Positions 8,754 through 63,034 of a DNA stretch of 64,000 nucleotides are shown one piece after another; position 1 is the stretch's first letter, and each line of letters opens with the position of its first letter. A model generated the notes under the pieces. The model was given only the letters and a program-made list of their open reading frames with translations, ran no database searches and was not told where the DNA came from. A program made the position numbers and the translations under genes. The stretch is taken from assembly GCF_004324755.1 (NCBI RefSeq), contig NZ_SDMQ01000002.1, positions 1-64,000 on the forward strand, written 5' to 3'. The DNA comes from Propioniciclava sinopodophylli (GTDB lineage Bacteria; Actinomycetota; Actinomycetes; Propionibacteriales; Propionibacteriaceae).

Positions 8754-11576
8754 TCAGGCCTCCGCGGGGCCCTCGGTGTCGACCTGCTCGCCGGGGGTCA
8801 CAACCTCGACCTCGTGGGGCCCGTCGGCCGGGGCGTCCGCCAGGGTCGGCTCGGCGGCCTGCTCCTGCTGCGGCTGCTCGGGCGCCTGCTCCTGGGGCGC
8901 CACCTCCGCGGGCTCGGGGGCCTGCTCCGGCTCGACCGGCGAGACGGCGGGCGGTGTCGGGTGCGACGGCGGGCTGGGTACGCGCGTGGTCGGCGGGACC
9001 GGCGCCGCCGGGGCCTGGTTGTCCGGGCGTCCGCCGCGCGAGCGGCCACCGCGGGAGCGTTGCTGCCCACGGCGTCCGCTGTCGCGGTCGCCACCGTCGG
9101 CGGGCGCCTGCGACGTCACGGGGGCGTCGTGGACGTGGTAGCCGCGGCCCGAGCAGGTCTCGCAGGTGACGGTGAACGCCTCGGCCAAGCCGGTGCCGAT
9201 CCGCTTGCGGGTCATCTGGACCAAGCCCAGCGAGGTCACCTCGGCGACCTGGTGGCGGGTGCGGTCGCGGCCCAGGCACTCCACCAGGCGGCGGAGCAGC
9301 AACTCGCGGTTGGCGGGCAGGACCATGTCGATGAAGTCGATGACGATGATGCCGCCGATATCGCGCAGGCGCAGCTGGCGGACGACCTCCTCGGCCGCCT
9401 CCAGGTTGTTCGAGGTCACGGTGGCCTCGAGGTTGCCCTGGTTGCCGGTGAACTTGCCGGTGTTGACGTCGATGACGGTCATCGCCTCGGTGCGGTCGAT
9501 CACCAGCGAGCCACCCGAGGGGAGGTGCACCTTGCGCTCCAGCGCCTTGGCCACCTGCTCGTGCACGCGGAATGTGTCGAAGATGTCGCCCTCGGTCGAG
9601 CGGTCCCAGCGGCGGAGGCGCTCGGACAGGTGCGGGGCCACGTGGGTGACGTAGGCCTCCATGGCGTCCCAGGCGTCCTCGCCCTGGCCGTTGCCGTCGA
9701 CGACGAGCGCGCTGAAGTCCTCCGTGAAGAGGTCGCGGACGATGCGGACGGTCAGGTCGGGCTCGGTGTAGAGCTGCTGCGGGGCGTTGCCGCCCTTGAC
9801 CTTCTTCTCGATGACCTCCCACTGGGCGCGCAGGCGGCTGACGTCGCGCTCGAGCTCCTCCTGCGAGGCGCCCTCGGCGGCGGTGCGGACGATCACGCTG
9901 GCGTCCTCACCGACGGCGTCATCGAGGATGCCCTTGAGGCGGGCGCGCTCGTTCTCGGGCAGCTTGCGGCTGATGCCGGACAGCTGGCCGCCCGGGCAGT
10001 AGACCACGTAGCGGCCGGGGATGGAGATGTGCGCGGTGAGACGGGCGCCCTTGGCGCCGATCGGGTCCTTGGTGACCTGCACGAGGATCGCCTGGCCCGA
10101 CTTGAGCACCTTCTCGACCTTGCGGTCGTCGCCGGTGACGCCGAAGGCGTCCCAGTCGATCTCGCCGGCGTAGATCACGGCGTTGCGGCCGCGGCCGATG
10201 TCGACGAAGGCGGCCTCCATCGAGGGCAGCACGTTCTGGACGCGGCCCAGGTAGATGTTGCCGATCATGGACGCCGAGCTGTCGCGGTCGACGTAGTGCT
10301 CCACGAGGACGCCGTCCTCCATGACCGCGATCTGGGTGTAGTCGTCGGCCTGCCGGATGAGCATCTGGCGCTCGACGGCCTCGCGGCGGGCCAGGAACTC
10401 GGCCTCGGACAGGATCGGGGCGCGGCGGCGTCCGGCGGCCCGACCCTCGCGGCGGCGCTGACGCTTGGCTTCCATGCGGGTGGAGCCCTCGATGCTGGTG
10501 ATCTCGTCGGCGGCGGACTTCGTGCGGGACGCGCGGGGCTCGCGCACCTTCACGACGACGTCGACGCCCTCCTCGTTGTCGGCGCCGGTGTCCTCGCCGC
10601 GACGGCGGCGGCGACGACGGCGACGGCTGGACGTCGTCGACTCGCCGGAGTCGGACTCGCCGTCGCCCTCGGCGGAGTCGGCGTCGCTGTCGTCGTCGGA
10701 CGCCTCGGCGTTGTCGTCGGAGTCGTCCGACTCGTCGTCGCTGTCGCTGTCGCTGTCGCTGTCGTCCTCGTTGTCCTCGTCGTTCTCGCCACCCCGGCGA
10801 CGGCGGCGGCCCCCGCGGCGGCGGCGCCGGCGGCGCGGGGTCGCATCGTCGGAGCCCTCACCGTCGGCGTAGTCGTCGGAGTTGTCGCTCTCGGTGTCGT
10901 CGCCGTTCGCGTCGCTGTCGGCGTCGCCGCTGATGGCGGCGGCCAGGTCGTCCAGGGCGGCAGAGACGTCGTCGCGGTGCGCGGGGGCGTCGGCGTCGGC
11001 GTCTTGGGCGCGCTCGGCGGTCAGGTGGGCGAGTTCCGCGCCGACGGGGTCAAAACCCTCGGCGGCGGGCTCCTCGTGAGCCGGCTCGATCTTGCGGGTG
11101 CGGCGGCGCGGGGCACGGCGGCGGGGTGCGGGGGCCTGCTCCTCGGCGGGCGCCTCGTCCGCGACGGGCTCGGCGGGGGCCTCCGCGGCCGATACTTCCT
11201 CGACAGGGGCGTCCTCGACGGGGGCGTCCTCGACGGGGTTCTCCTCGGTGAGGGCGAGCTCGGCGTCCAGCTCAGCCTCGTCGGCATCGAGGGCGGCCTC
11301 GACTTTGGTCATCTGGTCGGCGGGGGCGTCCACCTCCTCGGCCACGGGCTCGGGCGCGCTCTCCACGACGGGGGCGTCCACGGGGACCTCGCTCCACTCG
11401 GCCTCGACGGACTCGGGCTCGGGCGTGGGTGCGATCTCGGCGGGTGCGGGGGTCGGCTCAATGGCCTTGGGCGGGCCGGCGGGGCGGCTGGCGGAGCGAC
11501 GGCGGCGACGGGGCGCCGGGGTGCTTGACTCGGGGGAGTCTGCGGGTGCGCCGATGTGGGCATCCGAATCGAGCAT
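8754..11576 (-). CDS. rne: Ribonuclease E/G family endoribonuclease with long acidic N-terminal arm
   Basis: 940 residues, main single-strand endoribonuclease of RNA turnover. Residues 1-~400 are low complexity: Pro/Arg/Ser-rich, then Glu/Asp/Ala-rich, then runs of Asp/Ser and Arg. The S1 domain begins about 410 (QMLIRQADDYTQIAVMEDG, with GNIYLGRVQNVLPSMEAAFVDIG). The catalytic DNase-I-like part has MTVIDVNTGKFTG near 700, with metal-binding Asp. The zinc link is CETCSGRG near 810, then a basic/Pro-Glu tail. A GAGGAG ribosome-binding site five bases before the ATG fixes the start. Actinobacterial RNase E proteins share this flanking-arm design. In most relatives the next genes are rplU-rpmA; here DUF2891 follows. 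Confidence 0.96.
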   Translation of the reverse strand: MLDSDAHIGAPADSPESSTPAPRRRRRSASRPAGPPKAIEPTPAPAEIAPTPEPESVEAEWSEVPVDAPVVESAPEPVAEEVDAPADQMTKVEAALDADEAELDAELALTEENPVEDAPVEDAPVEEVSAAEAPAEPVADEAPAEEQAPAPRRRAPRRRTRKIEPAHEEPAAEGFDPVGAELAHLTAERAQDADADAPAHRDDVSAALDDLAAAISGDADSDANGDDTESDNSDDYADGEGSDDATPRRRRRRRGGRRRRRGGENDEDNEDDSDSDSDSDDESDDSDDNAEASDDDSDADSAEGDGESDSGESTTSSRRRRRRRRRGEDTGADNEEGVDVVVKVREPRASRTKSAADEITSIEGSTRMEAKRQRRREGRAAGRRRAPILSEAEFLARREAVERQMLIRQADDYTQIAVMEDGVLVEHYVDRDSSASMIGNIYLGRVQNVLPSMEAAFVDIGRGRNAVIYAGEIDWDAFGVTGDDRKVEKVLKSGQAILVQVTKDPIGAKGARLTAHISIPGRYVVYCPGGQLSGISRKLPENERARLKGILDDAVGEDASVIVRTAAEGASQEELERDVSRLRAQWEVIEKKVKGGNAPQQLYTEPDLTVRIVRDLFTEDFSALVVDGNGQGEDAWDAMEAYVTHVAPHLSERLRRWDRSTEGDIFDTFRVHEQVAKALERKVHLPSGGSLVIDRTEAMTVIDVNTGKFTGNQGNLEATVTSNNLEAAEEVVRQLRLRDIGGIIVIDFIDMVLPANRELLLRRLVECLGRDRTRHQVAEVTSLGLVQMTRKRIGTGLAEAFTVTCETCSGRGYHVHDAPVTSQAPADGGDRDSGRRGQQRSRGGRSRGGRPDNQAPAAPVPPTTRVPSPPSHPTPPAVSPVEPEQAPEPAEVAPQEQAPEQPQQEQAAEPTLADAPADGPHEVEVVTPGEQVDTEGPAEA

Positions 11577-11820
11577 GGTGCTCTCCTCTACACGGCAGGC
11601 GGACCTGCCGGACATGCGCCATGTCCTGGAAATCGTGACCAGGCACGACGAAGCTTGCGGTTTGACAGGGCCCGCCGCGGTCGACTGTCTCGTCGCGGCT
11701 ACGGCCCGGTCAGGCGCCGGGGACGGCGTCCAACCTGTTGGTCATTCTTTCACACCCGGGCTCGAAACCCCAGCCGGGAGGCCGGCGCGTGTTGCCGCCA
11801 CGGCGAAGCGGGAGGCACGC
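11577..11820. other. Intergenic region upstream of rne, no gene seen
   Basis: About 240 bases between the rne start and the tandem-repeat block. It should contain the rne promoter and 5' leader; no promoter with a good -35/-10 match was picked out with confidence. Open frames here lack coding-type third-position bias and continue into the repeats. Confidence 0.5.
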
Positions 11821-11950
11821 CGAGGGCTTGGGTCCGGTCCGCCGAGGGCTTGGGTCCGGTCCGCCGAGGGCTTGGGTCCGGTCCGCCGAGGGCTTGGGTT
11901 CGGTCCGCTGAGGGCTTGGGTTCGGCCCGCTGAGGGCTTGGGTTCGGCGC
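11821..11950 (+). repeat. 22-bp tandem repeat array 1, block A (six units, plus orientation)
   Basis: Six consecutive 22-bp units starting at 11821, 11843, 11865, 11887, 11909 and 11931, with no spacers. Each starts (C/T)GAGGGCTTGGGT and ends in a more variable CCGGTCC-like part; units 1-3 are identical, 4-6 drift and the last is shortened. The core GCCGAGGGCTTGGG recurs at 52.7 kb and 63.0 kb. All three minus-strand frames stay open through the block because the unit lacks stop codons, but a 22-base period rotates frames, so this is not a protein repeat. Confidence 0.95.
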
Positions 11951-12104
11951 TCTCGGCGCGCAAGGCCGGGGCTCTCGGCGCGCACGGCCGGGGCTCTCGG
12001 CGCGCAAGGCCGGGGCTCTCGGCACACAAGACCGGGGCTCTCGGCACACAAGACCGGGGCTCTCGGCACACAAGACCGGGGCTCTCGGCACACAAAGCCG
12101 GGGC
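11951..12104 (-). repeat. 22-bp tandem repeat array 1, block B (seven units, minus orientation)
   Basis: Seven exact 22-bp units (starts 11951, 11973, 11995, 12017, 12039, 12061, 12083) plus a degenerate eighth. Read on the minus strand each gives GCCGAGAGCCCCGG followed by CTTGYGY, so the block faces block A head-on. Three units carry the GCGCGC form and four the GCACAC form, suggesting stepwise duplication within the array. It ends 16 bases from the DUF2344 stop codon and, on that gene's transcript, forms the 3' untranslated region before rne. Confidence 0.95.
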
Positions 12105-12120
12105 TGTCGGCGGGGAGGGG

Positions 12121-44620: not shown

Positions 44621-44640
44621 GGCCGCGATCCTATTCCATC

Positions 44641-44728
44641 GCCGACAGCCCCGCTGTCGTGCGCCCAGAGCCCCGGTGTCGTGCGCCCAGAGCCCCGATG
44701 TTGTGCGCCGATAGCCCCTACTTCAGCC
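44641..44728 (+). repeat. 22-bp tandem repeat array 2 (about 3.5-4 units)
   Basis: Units start at 44641, 44663, 44685 and 44707 with no spacers. Each carries GCC(G/C)A(G/C/T)AGCCCC followed by a variable G(C/G/A)TGT(C/T)GTGC. These match the 'GAGAGCCCC' flavour of array 1 block B and of array 4. The fourth, most diverged unit contains the stop codon of the ABC permease gene (44718-44720), so the array is that gene's 3' end. All units point the same way; this is the one array without an inverted block. Confidence 0.9.
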
Positions 44729-51365: not shown

Positions 51366-52307
51366 CCCCGCCAGGAAGGCGTCGATCTCGGACGCCGTGG
51401 GTGCGGCCGCCGGGCCACGGCGGGTGACGGCGATGGCGCCGGCCACGTTGGCCCGCCGGCAGGATTCGACCCAGTCGGTGCCCCGCGCGCGCTCGGCCAG
51501 CAGGACGCCCGTGTGCGCGTCGCCGGCCCCGTTGGTGTCGACCGGCTCCTGCGGGAAGCCGGGCACGTCGGTGGTCGTCCCGCCGACCGCGACGGCGCAC
51601 CCGTGGCGCCCGTCGCGGACCACGACGACGATCCCGGGCAGCAGGCCCGTGAGCGCCTCGGCCGCGTCGGCCATGTCCGTGCCCGGGTGGTCGGCCCGCC
51701 GGACGCCGTGGGCGGCGAGCAGGTCGTCCGCCTCCTCCTGGTTCGAGGTCCACACGGTGGTGTGGCGCAGCATCGTGGCCCGGTCCCCGGGCGGGAGGGC
51801 GGCGAACGCCGCGCCGGGGTCGAGGACGACCTCCACCCCCTCGGGGAGGGTGTCGAGCCAGGTCAGGAGCGGCGCCCGGGTCGACTCGACCGCCAGCGAG
51901 TAGCCGGTCACGCAGACGAGGTCGCCGGCGGCGGGCCCGCTGGCGGCGAGGCTGTCGACGGTGATGCGGCGCTCGGCGCCCAGTGTGGTGACGAACGTCC
52001 GTTCGGCGCTGGGTTCGACGAGGACGACGCACAGGGCGGTGTCGGCGTCCGGGACCGCCGGGGCGGACCACACCACGCCCTCCCGCGTGAGCGCGGAGCG
52101 GATCAGGTCGCCGTTGGGTCCGGTGCCGATCGCCCCCGCGTGCACGCACTCGGCGCCCGAGCGGGCCGCGGCGGCGAGGATGTTCACCGCTCCCCCGGCG
52201 TGCTGGTTCCAGTCGACGGCCATCACGTTCTGCCCCCGGCGCGGCAGGGCGGGGATCATGGCGGTGGCGTCCACCAGCGCCTGGCCGGTGTGGATGATGC
52301 GGGGCAT
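51330..52307 (-). CDS. PfkB-family carbohydrate kinase
   Basis: 325 residues, ribokinase fold. Motifs: N-terminal HAGGAVNILAAAARSG (substrate-binding G-G region), the C-terminal signature DTNGAGDAHTGVLLAE (catalytic Asp, anion hole) and TSNQEEADDLLAAHG. Specificity (ribose, fructose, nucleoside) not readable. The start shares bases with the DUF2200 stop (TGATG), so the two are co-translated, an unusual pairing. Confidence 0.9.
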   Translation of the reverse strand: MPRIIHTGQALVDATAMIPALPRRGQNVMAVDWNQHAGGAVNILAAAARSGAECVHAGAIGTGPNGDLIRSALTREGVVWSAPAVPDADTALCVVLVEPSAERTFVTTLGAERRITVDSLAASGPAAGDLVCVTGYSLAVESTRAPLLTWLDTLPEGVEVVLDPGAAFAALPPGDRATMLRHTTVWTSNQEEADDLLAAHGVRRADHPGTDMADAAEALTGLLPGIVVVVRDGRHGCAVAVGGTTTDVPGFPQEPVDTNGAGDAHTGVLLAERARGTDWVESCRRANVAGAIAVTRRGPAAAPTASEIDAFLAGLSAGGGGDQGR

Positions 52308-52660
52308 CAGCCGGCCCGCAGGATGCTGGTCAGCTTCTTGCCCTTGGCGAGTTCGTCGACAAGCTTGTCCATCCAGCGGATCTGCTGCATGAGCGGGTCC
52401 TCGATGTCCTGGACCTTGTGGCCGCAGATCACCCCGGTGATGAGCGTGGCGTTGGGGTTCATCTTCGGCGCTTGGGCGAAGAACGTCTCCAGGTCGCGCC
52501 GATCGGCGACCGCCGCGGCGATGCCGGCCTCGTCGTAGCCGGTGAGCCACTCCAGCACCGTGTGGAGGTCCGCGACCGTGTACCCCTTCTTCTGCGCCTT
52601 GGTGACGTAGTGCGGGTAGATGTCGGCGAACGGGATGCCGAAGATGCGGTGTCGGGTCAC
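52307..52660 (-). CDS. DUF2200 family protein
   Basis: 117 residues matching DUF2200: HRIFGIPFADIYPHYVTKAQKKGYT, LEWLTGYDEAG and the C-terminal NATLITGVICGHKVQDIEDPLMQQIRWMDKLVDELAKGK. Small cytosolic proteins of unknown function. The start is GTG (52658-52660). Immediately upstream (on its own strand) begins repeat array 3, so its promoter must lie within or across the array. Confidence 0.88.
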   Translation of the reverse strand: MTRHRIFGIPFADIYPHYVTKAQKKGYTVADLHTVLEWLTGYDEAGIAAAVADRRDLETFFAQAPKMNPNATLITGVICGHKVQDIEDPLMQQIRWMDKLVDELAKGKKLTSILRAG

Positions 52661-52680
52661 GGCGGACAGCCTAGGTCCGC

Positions 52681-52790
52681 CGAGGGCTTGGGTTCACTCC
52701 GCCGAGGGCTTGGGCCCACTCCGCCGAGGGCTTGGGTTCACTCCGCCGAGCGCTTGGGTCCACTCCGCCGAGGGCTTGGGATCGCCGGGG
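52681..52790 (+). repeat. 22-bp tandem repeat array 3, block A (five units, plus orientation)
   Basis: Units start at 52681, 52703, 52725, 52747 and 52769: CGAGGGCTTGGG followed by a variable TTCACTCCGC-like part. One unit has GAGCGCTTGGG, and the last diverges at its 3' end into a GC hairpin. Same core as array 1 block A. Faces block B across a 27-base centre. Confidence 0.95.
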
Positions 52791-52802
52791 GCAGTGCCCC
52801 GG
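52785..52802. terminator. Small GC hairpin at the centre of array 3
   Basis: CCGGGG-GCAGTG-CCCCGG forms a perfect six-pair stem at the exact apex between the two opposing repeat blocks. If both blocks pair, this would be the tip of a hairpin with arms of about 90-110 bases. Confidence 0.5.
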
Positions 52803-52817
52803 ACGTCCGAGCCGCGG

Positions 52818-52905
52818 GCAAGCCCTCGGCGAGGTGAAGGCAAGCCCTCGGCGAGGTGAAGGCAAGCCCTCGGCGAGGTGTAGGCAAGCCCTCGGCGGTC
52901 AAGCA
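52818..52905 (-). repeat. 22-bp tandem repeat array 3, block B (four units, minus orientation)
   Basis: Units start at 52818, 52840, 52862 and 52884: GCAAGCCCTCGGCGAGGTGA-like, i.e. CGCCGAGGGCTTGC on the minus strand. The first two are identical. Pairing with block A covers roughly 18 of 22 bases per unit. On the MaoC-type gene's transcript this is the 3' untranslated region, 45 bases after the stop. Confidence 0.95.
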
Positions 52906-52949
52906 GGAGTCCTGCTCGTGCCTCCCGCTTCGCCGCGGCGAACGGAGGG

Positions 52950-53807
52950 TCAGGCGGGTGTGATGGAGCCGGTCAGGTAGGGCTTGCCGTCGCGGTTCGT
53001 GACCGCGAACGAGGAGCCGTCGGTGGCGAAACCCGCCTTGCCGGGCAGCAGGATCGGGCGCTTGAACTCCACGTCGACGGTGTACGCGTCGGGCAGCCGC
53101 GGCTCGAGGGCCGCAATCACGCGGGCGTGCGTCCACATGCCGTGGATGATCGGCCGCTTGAACCCGAACACCCGCGCGGTCAGCGCGTTGAGGTGGATCG
53201 GGTTCACGTCGCCCGACACCGCCGCGTACTGACGGCCCAGGTCGGCGGGCAGGCGCCACTGCTGGCTGATGGCCGGCAGCGCGACCTCGGACGCCGCGGG
53301 CTCGGCCTCCGCTGGTGCCGAGGCTCCCGCGACCTTGCCCCCGAGGGCGAGGTAGCTGCTGGTGCCCGTCCAGACGGTCTCGCCGCCGCGTCCACGCACC
53401 TCGCCCAGCAGGTCGAACAGCGCGCCCTTGCGGTGCGGGCGCGCGTTGCCGGCGCGCACCACCAGGGCGAGTTCCTCGCCGACCGACACAGGGCGGTGCA
53501 GCATCATCGAGTTCGACGCGTGCACGAGCCCGGCCAGTGCATACGGGAAGTCGCGCTCGGCCATCAGGGCCGCCTGCAGCGGGAAGGTCAGGACGTGCAG
53601 CCACGTCGGCGGCACGTGGTCGCGCAGCGTGAAGCCGCACACCCGGGCGTAGGCCGACAGCCGCGCGATGTCCTGGCGGTGGGACGCCACGATCGCTGCC
53701 CGCCCGGGCACCGGGCGCGCACCGCGACCGGCCCCGATCGAGCCGGCGACGCCGCGCGCGAGCAGCGGCCCGATGGACGGCAACTCGGGAAAGACGAGGT
53801 CGGCCAT
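52950..53807 (-). CDS. MaoC-like enoyl/3-hydroxyacyl-CoA dehydratase (HtdX-type)
   Basis: 285 residues in a double hot-dog arrangement. The C-terminal half has the hydratase motif YAAVSGDVNPIHLNALTARVFGFKRPIIHG (Asp/His pair of the R-specific hydratase), and the N-terminal half is a degenerate hot-dog. This matches mycobacterial HtdX-type dehydratases that act on 3-hydroxyacyl thioesters. It follows the FabG4-like gene by one base in the same order (thiolase, FabG4, HtdX) as Rv0243-Rv0241c, pointing to a complete keto-reduction/dehydration path. Followed by repeat array 3. Confidence 0.88.
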   Translation of the reverse strand: MADLVFPELPSIGPLLARGVAGSIGAGRGARPVPGRAAIVASHRQDIARLSAYARVCGFTLRDHVPPTWLHVLTFPLQAALMAERDFPYALAGLVHASNSMMLHRPVSVGEELALVVRAGNARPHRKGALFDLLGEVRGRGGETVWTGTSSYLALGGKVAGASAPAEAEPAASEVALPAISQQWRLPADLGRQYAAVSGDVNPIHLNALTARVFGFKRPIIHGMWTHARVIAALEPRLPDAYTVDVEFKRPILLPGKAGFATDGSSFAVTNRDGKPYLTGSITPA

Positions 53808-62896: not shown

Positions 62897-62902
62897 CCCT
62901 GC

Positions 62903-63034
62903 GCCGAGAGCCCCGGGTTTCTGCGCCGAGAGCCCCAGTGTTCGGCGCCGAGAGCCCCGACACGTGCGCCGAGGCCTTGGGTTCGTGATCGAACCCAAGC
63001 CCTCGGCGGACTGAACCCAAGCCCTCGGCGTCAG
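62903..63034. repeat. 22-bp tandem repeat array 4 (three plus-orientation, three hairpin-forming units)
   Basis: Three units of the GAGAGCCCC flavour (62903, 62925 and 62947; the third is 21 bp) are followed by GCCGAGGCCTTGGGTTCG (62968) and two opposing units with CGAACCCAAGCCCTCGGC (62989 and 63013). The fourth and fifth units form a near-perfect 18-bp stem with a four-base TGAT loop, sitting exactly between the two convergent genes; the last unit contains the stop codon of the OadB-type gene (63031-63033). Both flavours occur in one array. Confidence 0.95.

What the first reader, a model, noticed from the sequence alone, without database searches (positions are those of the whole stretch)
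52681..52905. Array 3 is a head-to-head pair of repeat blocks able to fold into one very long hairpin
Five plus-orientation units face four minus-orientation units across a 27-base centre that itself carries a perfect CCGGGG/CCCCGG hairpin. Opposing units match at about 18 of 22 positions, giving arms near 90-100 bases. Such a structure would be a strong RNA stem after the MaoC-type gene, an RNase III or RNase E substrate, or a DNA cruciform. Tandem duplication alone does not give this; an inversion or copying across strands is needed.
Basis: seen in the sequence. Interest (0 to 1): 0.78.

Follow-up and report, generated by a model that had tools for sequence, protein, structure and literature searches.

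The report
Inward-facing tandem repeat arrays
A long inverted stretch of 22-letter repeats beyond the end of a metabolic gene belongs to a family of repeat blocks scattered through this bacterium and a few close relatives; neighbouring blocks point towards each other far more often than chance, but most blocks cannot form a hairpin, so the hairpin is probably not their purpose.

Summary
At 52678-52897 five plus-strand 22-bp units face four minus-strand units and fold into one very stable stem (z about -9 on either strand). It is one of 73 array islands studied in this genome (258 tandem unit pairs genome-wide, 0 in the control; 0 of 133 genomes outside the genus). Orientation is not random: neighbouring opposite blocks face inward 31 times and outward twice. 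But 54 of 73 islands hold runs of one orientation only and on average fold like shuffled DNA (mean z -0.4), arms of adjacent pairs are not matched to each other, no U-tract terminator is found, and the array is absent from this junction in G001, G012 and G007. I read it as a lineage-specific dispersed minisatellite that grows in 22-bp steps, settles after stop codons (59 stop contacts, 6 start contacts) and is copied locally in inverted form. A sister species uses an unrelated 20-bp unit with the same layout. No Y1 transposase was found in 13 genus genomes. A role for the stem in the MaoC transcript is possible but unsupported. Strangest is the inward-facing rule, including pairs that bracket whole native genes.

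The parts
52678..52787 (+). Five plus-orientation 22-bp units (class A, TTGGG subtype); the -35 region of the likely DUF2200 promoter falls inside them
52788..52809 (.). Centre between the two runs; with its edges it carries the CCGGGG/CCCCGG hairpin at 52785-52802
   Evidence: read from sequence; fold
52810..52897 (-). Four minus-orientation 22-bp units (class A, TTGCC subtype)
52902..52916 (.). Small hairpin AGCAGGAGTCCTGCT between the minus run and the cap
   Evidence: read; folds
52917..52940 (-). Cap repeat (CGCCGCGGCGAAGCGGGAGGCACG) at the outer 5' end of the minus run
   Evidence: 0 mismatches over 19 bases at 52917-52935; extent to 52940 read from sequence
52950..53807 (-). MaoC-like dehydratase gene whose transcript would carry the stem
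   Evidence: PF01575, E 3.3e-13
52307..52660 (-). DUF2200 gene; TAGGCT, a possible -10 element, at 52668-52673, is kept in G001, G012 and G007
   Evidence: PF09966, E 8e-48; -10 by eye, not tested
11818..12112 (.). Array 1 of the same family: 6 plus class A units facing 8 minus units, 7 of them class B
   Evidence: z -8.0
44640..44727 (+). Array 2: 4 class B units, one orientation only
   Evidence: z -2.5
62902..63030 (.). Array 4: 3 class B and 1 class A plus units facing 2 class A minus units, between two convergent genes, stop to stop
   Evidence: z -6.3

Best explanation
Array 3 is one copy of a dispersed, non-coding minisatellite family that, in the genomes searched, is limited to this genus. 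Shown: 22-bp units in tandem runs; runs sit in intergenic DNA, often hard against stop codons; runs that lie near each other point inward; unit sequence and presence change between sister species while the layout recurs. Inferred: runs grow and shrink in 22-bp steps by slippage; a run is copied in inverted form over at most about 1.3 kb by template switching; spread to new sites uses an unidentified route. At array 3 the element lies between the MaoC stop and the likely DUF2200 promoter, so the MaoC transcript would carry an imperfect stem with arms of about 100 bases. That stem may pause RNA polymerase, protect the 3' end or be cut by RNase III, as a side effect tolerated at that place rather than the reason the family exists.
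For: 258 tandem pairs, 0 in the control. 88 of 91 runs outside predicted genes; 59 contacts (within 15 bp) with stop codons against 6 with starts. Inward-facing neighbours: adjacent 18 to 1, 151-2000 bp apart 13 to 1, with 1 plus-plus and 1 minus-minus. Bracketing partners resemble each other more than swapped arms: 9.37 against 6.61 of 12 (0 of 3000 permutations as high), and 9.37 against 8.45 within class (p 0.006); 4 of 13 share an identical 22-mer against 2.7% of random same-class pairs. One-orientation islands fold like shuffles on average, 54 islands, mean z -0.38. Absent at this junction in G001, G012 and G007; at the L053 site five relatives show five different states. Sister species G005 has an unrelated 20-bp unit with the same inward layout in 14 of 16 islands, the other 2 showing one arm. 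No Y1_Tnp in 13 genus genomes.
Against: No spreading enzyme or route was found. Slippage and template switching are inferred, not seen; no target duplication was found. The inward polarity is not explained by either. The invariant core in every class could equally mean a protein-binding site. The unit-family search outside the genus used one unit pattern, so related systems with other units are not excluded.
Confidence: 0.6

Rival explanations
1. The head-to-head arrays are kept because their RNA stem works: a two-way transcription terminator or an RNase III-processed or protected 3' end, here insulating the DUF2200 promoter from MaoC read-through.
For: Very stable folds; 19 two-orientation islands with mean z -6.9; position after stop codons; relatives carry unrelated hairpins at several orthologous 3' positions (G012 and G005 for array 3; G001 for L036, L037 and array 4; G006 and G007 for L053), read by eye without a control set.
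Against: 54 of 73 islands have one orientation only; no U-tract terminator site; arms of adjacent pairs not matched beyond swapped arms; the conserved centre in G005 shows no compensatory change beyond shuffles (80.0% paired against 80.9%); tail-to-tail pairs would fold as well (L011, z -9.9) yet are rare.
Confidence: 0.2
2. The runs are directional binding sites for an unknown protein (22 bp is about two helical turns), and inward-facing pairs form loops or roadblocks around genes.
For: Core nearly invariant in every class; strict polarity of neighbours, including around whole genes; same inward layout with another unit in G005.
Against: No candidate protein; arrays absent at most orthologous sites of the nearest relative examined, so the sites are not conserved; partner similarity points to copying rather than independent recruitment.
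Confidence: 0.1
3. REP/REPIN-type elements spread by a RAYT (Y1 HUH) transposase.
For: High copy number, intergenic position after stops, species-specific sequence, head-to-head doublets; L053 has inverted caps at both ends, like terminal inverted repeats.
Against: No Y1_Tnp (PF01797) match in any of 13 genus genomes, while the control rings in 5 of 14 named genomes; one-orientation units do not fold as palindromes and the consensus has no GTAG/CGTC tag; 22-bp tandem runs are not the REP layout described in the passages read.
Confidence: 0.05

Closest known systems
REPINs / BIMEs (REP doublets; PMC3116915, PMC3733652, PMC2817692)
   Same: Short intergenic repeats in high copy, species-specific, often as head-to-head inverted doublets that can fold into one large stem-loop; REP clusters and tandem arrays are described.
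   Different: Here the repeated unit is a non-palindromic 22-mer in direct tandem runs, most islands have one orientation, and no RAYT-type Y1_Tnp domain is found in the genus.
Dispersed bacterial satellite families (PMC6749651, e.g. Leptospira interrogans, Chloroflexus aurantiacus)
   Same: Non-coding tandem repeats of one sequence family scattered over one genome, species-specific, spread by an unknown route.
   Different: The sections read describe no inverted pairing, no stop-codon position and no polarity; their non-coding families with repeats over 30 nt are rare, and a 22-bp unit falls in their short-repeat class.
MIRU-VNTR of mycobacteria (recalled, only a search listing seen)
   Same: Actinobacterial tandem repeats between genes, recalled as lying at stop/start junctions.
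   Different: As recalled, MIRU units are longer (about 40-100 bp), run in one direction and form no inverted pairs.

Membership tests
REP / REPIN | Unit is a 20-40 bp palindrome with a GTAG or CGTC tag (PMC3733652 abstract and passages) | tested here: not met
   Consensus 22-mers of classes A and B carry no such tag; islands of one orientation have mean z -0.38
REP / REPIN | Associated RAYT (Y1 tyrosine transposase) gene in the genome | tested here: not met
   PF01797: 0 of 13 genus genomes at E <= 0.001; control rings in 5 of 14
REP / REPIN | High-copy intergenic doublets in inverted orientation | tested here: inconclusive
   High copy and intergenic: met. Doublets: 19 of 73 islands hold both orientations
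Dispersed non-coding satellite family | Tandem repeats of 10-200 nt, at least 4 copies, one sequence family at many unlinked sites, non-coding | tested here: met
   Period 22, many islands with 4 or more units though some have 2-3; 73 islands; 88 of 91 runs outside predicted genes
Intrinsic terminator | G+C-rich stem followed by a U-tract | tested here: not met
   0 sites in window 52300-53300
MITE | Terminal inverted repeats and target-site duplication | tested here: inconclusive
   L053 has inverted caps; no clean duplication visible at the L053 or L039 sites
Known Rfam RNA family | Match at gathering score | tested here: not met
   0 matches in the 64-kb window
MIRU-VNTR | Sequence relation to mycobacterial MIRU | not tested
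   MIRU is recalled; no sequence was compared

The most novel reading that the evidence does not exclude
A kind of bacterial mobile satellite without a Y1 transposase: short direct-repeat runs that are copied locally in inverted form so that partners point inward, either across a small centre or around a whole native gene, while the unit sequence is replaced wholesale between sister species and the layout persists. The constant polarity would mean a directional copying mechanism or a directional binding factor that has not been described.
Probability: 0.3. Interest if true: 0.8.

Novelty: new variant of a known kind. Interest (0 to 1): 0.55.

Why it matters
A survey of 119 bacterial genomes found that most have few tandem-repeat satellites, that dispersed families are usually species-specific, and that how they spread is unknown (PMC6749651, parts 1-3 of 5 read). 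Here one small genus offers two unrelated units with one layout, several states at one orthologous site, and a strict polarity (binomial 4e-5 for adjacent and 9e-4 for bracketing pairs). That would make the birth, inversion, spread and loss of bacterial satellites open to direct test in a few related genomes. It also warns that a very strong predicted hairpin can be a by-product of repeat dynamics.

Tried and rejected
REP/REPIN with RAYT: rejected as a membership, because the unit is no palindrome and no Y1_Tnp was found. Known RNA family: none at gathering score. Intrinsic terminator: no site. Assembly artefact: unlikely, since G001, held as one 3.43-Mb contig, has a head-to-head array (L064: 3 plus then 2 minus units), and G008 has one at the L053 site. 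Gene cassette between inverted arrays: the enclosed genes look ordinary (thiolase, glutamine amidotransferase, response regulator; named by eye from translations), and L040 is collinear with G001 through the enclosed gene. Selection against perfect palindromes in adjacent pairs: arms were less alike than random same-class pairs (7.4 against 8.4 of 12), but swapping arms among the same loci removed the effect, so I do not claim it. Compensatory changes in the G005 centre: none beyond shuffles.

Literature: 0 papers for '22-bp' + 'tandem repeat' + 'intergenic' + 'Propionibacteriaceae'; 9 for Propioniciclava + repeat, none about genome repeats by title; the listings named nothing that I recognised as this family. 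That is absence in these searches only. A look at 14 stretches of up to 20 kb from other genera of the family and 4 from this genus showed further tandem arrays of 16-26 bp with other units in some, not analysed.

Limits. Gene calls come from my own codon-usage caller trained on 28 window ORFs; it misses some genes (e.g. beside array 1), so contact counts are approximate, and a run can have two contacts. The first run filter wrongly dropped a 3-unit minus run in L012, which made L012 a bracketing pair; I redid the counts without that filter, and this moved the result slightly in favour of my reading. In one search, 6 runs inside predicted genes were left out; two of its 13 bracketing pairs (L021, L029) rest on weak two-unit partner runs, and the class of the L021 partner is ambiguous. 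sums calls of z. Loci were fetched from lists of which the tool shows only about the first 100 places, so the islands are a large part of the genome's arrays, not all. L017 and L046 came in through the inverted-pair search; L009 and L011 were also seen in the outward search. Neighbours further than about 1.4 kb were mostly outside the fetched stretches.

Full report
What is there. The window is G000:C22:1-64000 of a 3.07-Mb genome in 43 contigs. The exact tandem pattern finds outside hits only in MAG records titled uncultured Propioniciclava (5 stretches) and Propionibacteriaceae bacterium (1 stretch); their positions coincide with G008 hits, so the genus is close to Propioniciclava (inference). 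Array 3 is as described: 5 plus and 4 minus 22-bp units, folding to -156.4 kcal/mol with 0 of 200 shuffles as good, and to -198.3 on the MaoC strand with flanks, 0 of 100. It lies between the MaoC-like gene (stop at 52950) and a DUF2200 gene (start at 52660), both on the minus strand. A cap repeat extends the element to about 52940.

The family. Two main unit classes occur: A (CGCCGAGGGCTTG...) and B (CGCCGAGAGCCCC...). Across run consensuses (46 A, 41 B, 4 others) positions 1-13 are mostly fixed and the rest varies. Tandem pairs with up to 2 mismatches: 144 forward and 114 reverse, 0 in the control. Of 146 related genomes 7 have any pair, all among the 13 of the genus: 258 in the own genome, 36 in G001, 22 in G008, 5 each in G007 and G011, 3 in G012, 2 in G002, 0 in the other six; 0 of 133 outside the genus. 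I fetched a large part of the array loci and obtained 91 runs of two or more units in 73 islands.

Where arrays sit. 88 of 91 runs lie outside predicted genes. Counting contacts within 15 bp, 35 are with a stop codon with the run in sense, 24 with a stop codon with the run in antisense, 6 with start codons; 33 runs have none. Between convergent genes an array can fill the gap stop to stop (array 4; L045, L060). In antisense contacts the unit can supply the last codons and the stop, giving protein tails such as KPSAD or EPSAG (translations of L040 and L041).

Orientation. With the mended run list, adjacent opposite runs (gap up to 150 bp) are 18 head-to-head and 1 tail-to-tail (binomial 4e-5). 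Runs 151-2000 bp apart are 13 inward-facing, 1 outward, 1 plus-plus, 1 minus-minus (13 of 14 opposite pairs, 9e-4). By my arithmetic 73 islands spread at random over 3.07 Mb would give about 2-4 neighbours that close, about one or less per orientation class, so the excess lies in the inward class. Whole-genome patterns with exact cores at up to 61 bp agree: 25 inward matches against 6 outward, the latter at four places, of which two are known array loci. Inward pairs also occur in G001 (L062) and G008 (L065).

Are partners copies of each other? For the 13 bracketing pairs yes: all are of one class (the L021 partner being ambiguous), spacer similarity is 9.37 of 12 against 6.61 when arms are swapped among loci (0 of 3000 as high) and 8.45 when swapped within class (p 0.006), and 4 of 13 share an identical 22-mer against 2.7% of random same-class pairs. 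For the 18 adjacent pairs no: 6.08 against 5.98 swapped, none shares a 22-mer, 6 join different classes (first pass 5.98 against 5.93). Array 3 itself joins a TTGGG arm to a TTGCC arm. The innermost units pair somewhat better than mixed halves (0.453 against 0.378, p 0.01), on a list that includes some spurious centres.

Is the hairpin the point? 19 islands with both orientations have mean z -6.9; the 54 with runs of one orientation have mean z -0.38, 8 of them below -2, of which at least L010 and L035 carry a single inverted core. So the fold follows from having both orientations, and most islands lack it. Tail-to-tail pairs would fold just as well (L011, z -9.9), so folding does not explain the polarity either. 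No U-tract terminator or sigma-70-like promoter is found around array 3. On the other side, several relatives carry unrelated hairpins at orthologous 3' positions (G012 and G005 for array 3; G001 for L036, L037 and array 4; G006 and G007 for L053). I read these by eye and have no control set, so they keep the terminator reading alive without proving it.

History. At the array 3 junction G001 has an unrelated ORF of about 0.9 kb, G012 a gap of about 106 bp with its own hairpin, and G007 8 bp between the aligned flanks. In the stretches of G006, G005, G002 and G011 no DUF2200 alignment lies beside MaoC, so the junction is not comparable there. Along contig C22, 400 kb of G001 is collinear with the own genome. 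Of 13 other array runs or islands compared, L040 has arrays on both sides of one gene in both species, L039 has a single small palindrome in G001, and in the other 10 the G001 interval shows no tandem units, though scattered single near-cores occur in the three long intervals. At L039 the flanks are 96% identical and G001 has just CGCCGAGGGCTCGGCG where the own genome has a 176-bp pair: a seed or a collapse product. At the L053 site the own genome has a capped head-to-head element, G008 a head-to-head element of its own unit, G001 two units and a cap fragment, G012 one core, G006 a plain hairpin with the core, G007 an unrelated hairpin.

The cap. CGGCGAAGCGGGAGGCACG (up to 2 mismatches) occurs 5 times in the own genome and 15 times in G001, fewer or none elsewhere in the genus; the control pattern gives 0 and 2 there. 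In 11 of 12 held copies it runs straight into a unit; in array 3 a 19-base stretch with a small hairpin lies between. Some of those loci were fetched because they matched cap plus array, so 11 of 12 is not an unbiased figure.

Sister species with another unit. G005 has 44 exact pairs of an unrelated 20-bp unit, the own genome 0, G002 1, the other ten 0. All 16 islands of that list were held; 14 show both orientations, all 14 in the same inward sense, and 2 show one arm. 15 of 16 carry a close relative (26 or more of 34 bases) of a perfect 34-bp palindromic centre, with 0 hits of 25 or more in 700 kb of other genus members. The centre shows no compensatory change beyond shuffles. G011 has 22-bp units with another core, again inward-facing about 0.8 kb apart.

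Known kinds. REPINs are nearest in look (PMC3116915: abstract and sections 11-12 read; PMC3733652: passages; PMC2817692: abstract), but the unit is not a palindrome and no Y1_Tnp domain is found in 13 genus genomes. Dispersed satellites are nearest in kind (PMC6749651, parts 1-3 of 5 read). MIRU is recalled only.

Verdict. The stronger finding is the inward-facing rule of a dispersed satellite family whose unit changes between species while the layout returns. I cannot say how the polarity arises.

Noticed in passing
L015, L018, L019, L020, L040, L041, L042, L043, L054, L055, L058 (bracketing pairs): Runs 0.2-1.3 kb apart face inward around whole native genes or, in L019, what looks like a tRNA, and partners are of one class; arrays bracket the same gene in G001 at L040.
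   Followed up: partly
L144:10562-10799, L145:15602-15779, L169-L181 (G005): A sister species has an unrelated 20-bp unit family arranged head-to-head around a conserved 34-bp palindromic centre.
   Followed up: yes
L148:10262-10356 and 11116-11260 (G011): Another species of the genus has 22-bp units with core CGCCGAGGACTTCGG, again inward-facing about 0.8 kb apart.
   Followed up: partly
L152:4866-5117 (G016, another genus), L164:14283-14340 (G050): Tandem runs of 19 bp and 20 bp with other sequences in other genera of the family; layout and gene context not analysed.
   Followed up: no
L040:2117-2135, L041:1558-1584 and 2702-2729: Antisense units run into gene ends and supply the last codons and stop, giving C-terminal tails such as EPSAG, KPSAG and KPSAD.
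   Followed up: no
window 11801, window 52917, L053:1437 and 1615: Cap repeat CGGCGAAGCGGGAGGCACG at the outer 5' end of runs; L053 has it inverted at both ends, like terminal inverted repeats.
   Followed up: partly
L023 and L056 centres: Centres contain another hairpin-like stretch (GAGGTG...GCGAGCCTCGAAG) that may be a separate dispersed repeat.
   Followed up: no
G001 and G012 between the PfkB kinase and DUF2200 genes: Extra DNA of about 0.8 kb, with what look by eye like a membrane-protein gene and a small helix-turn-helix gene, is absent from the own genome.
   Followed up: no
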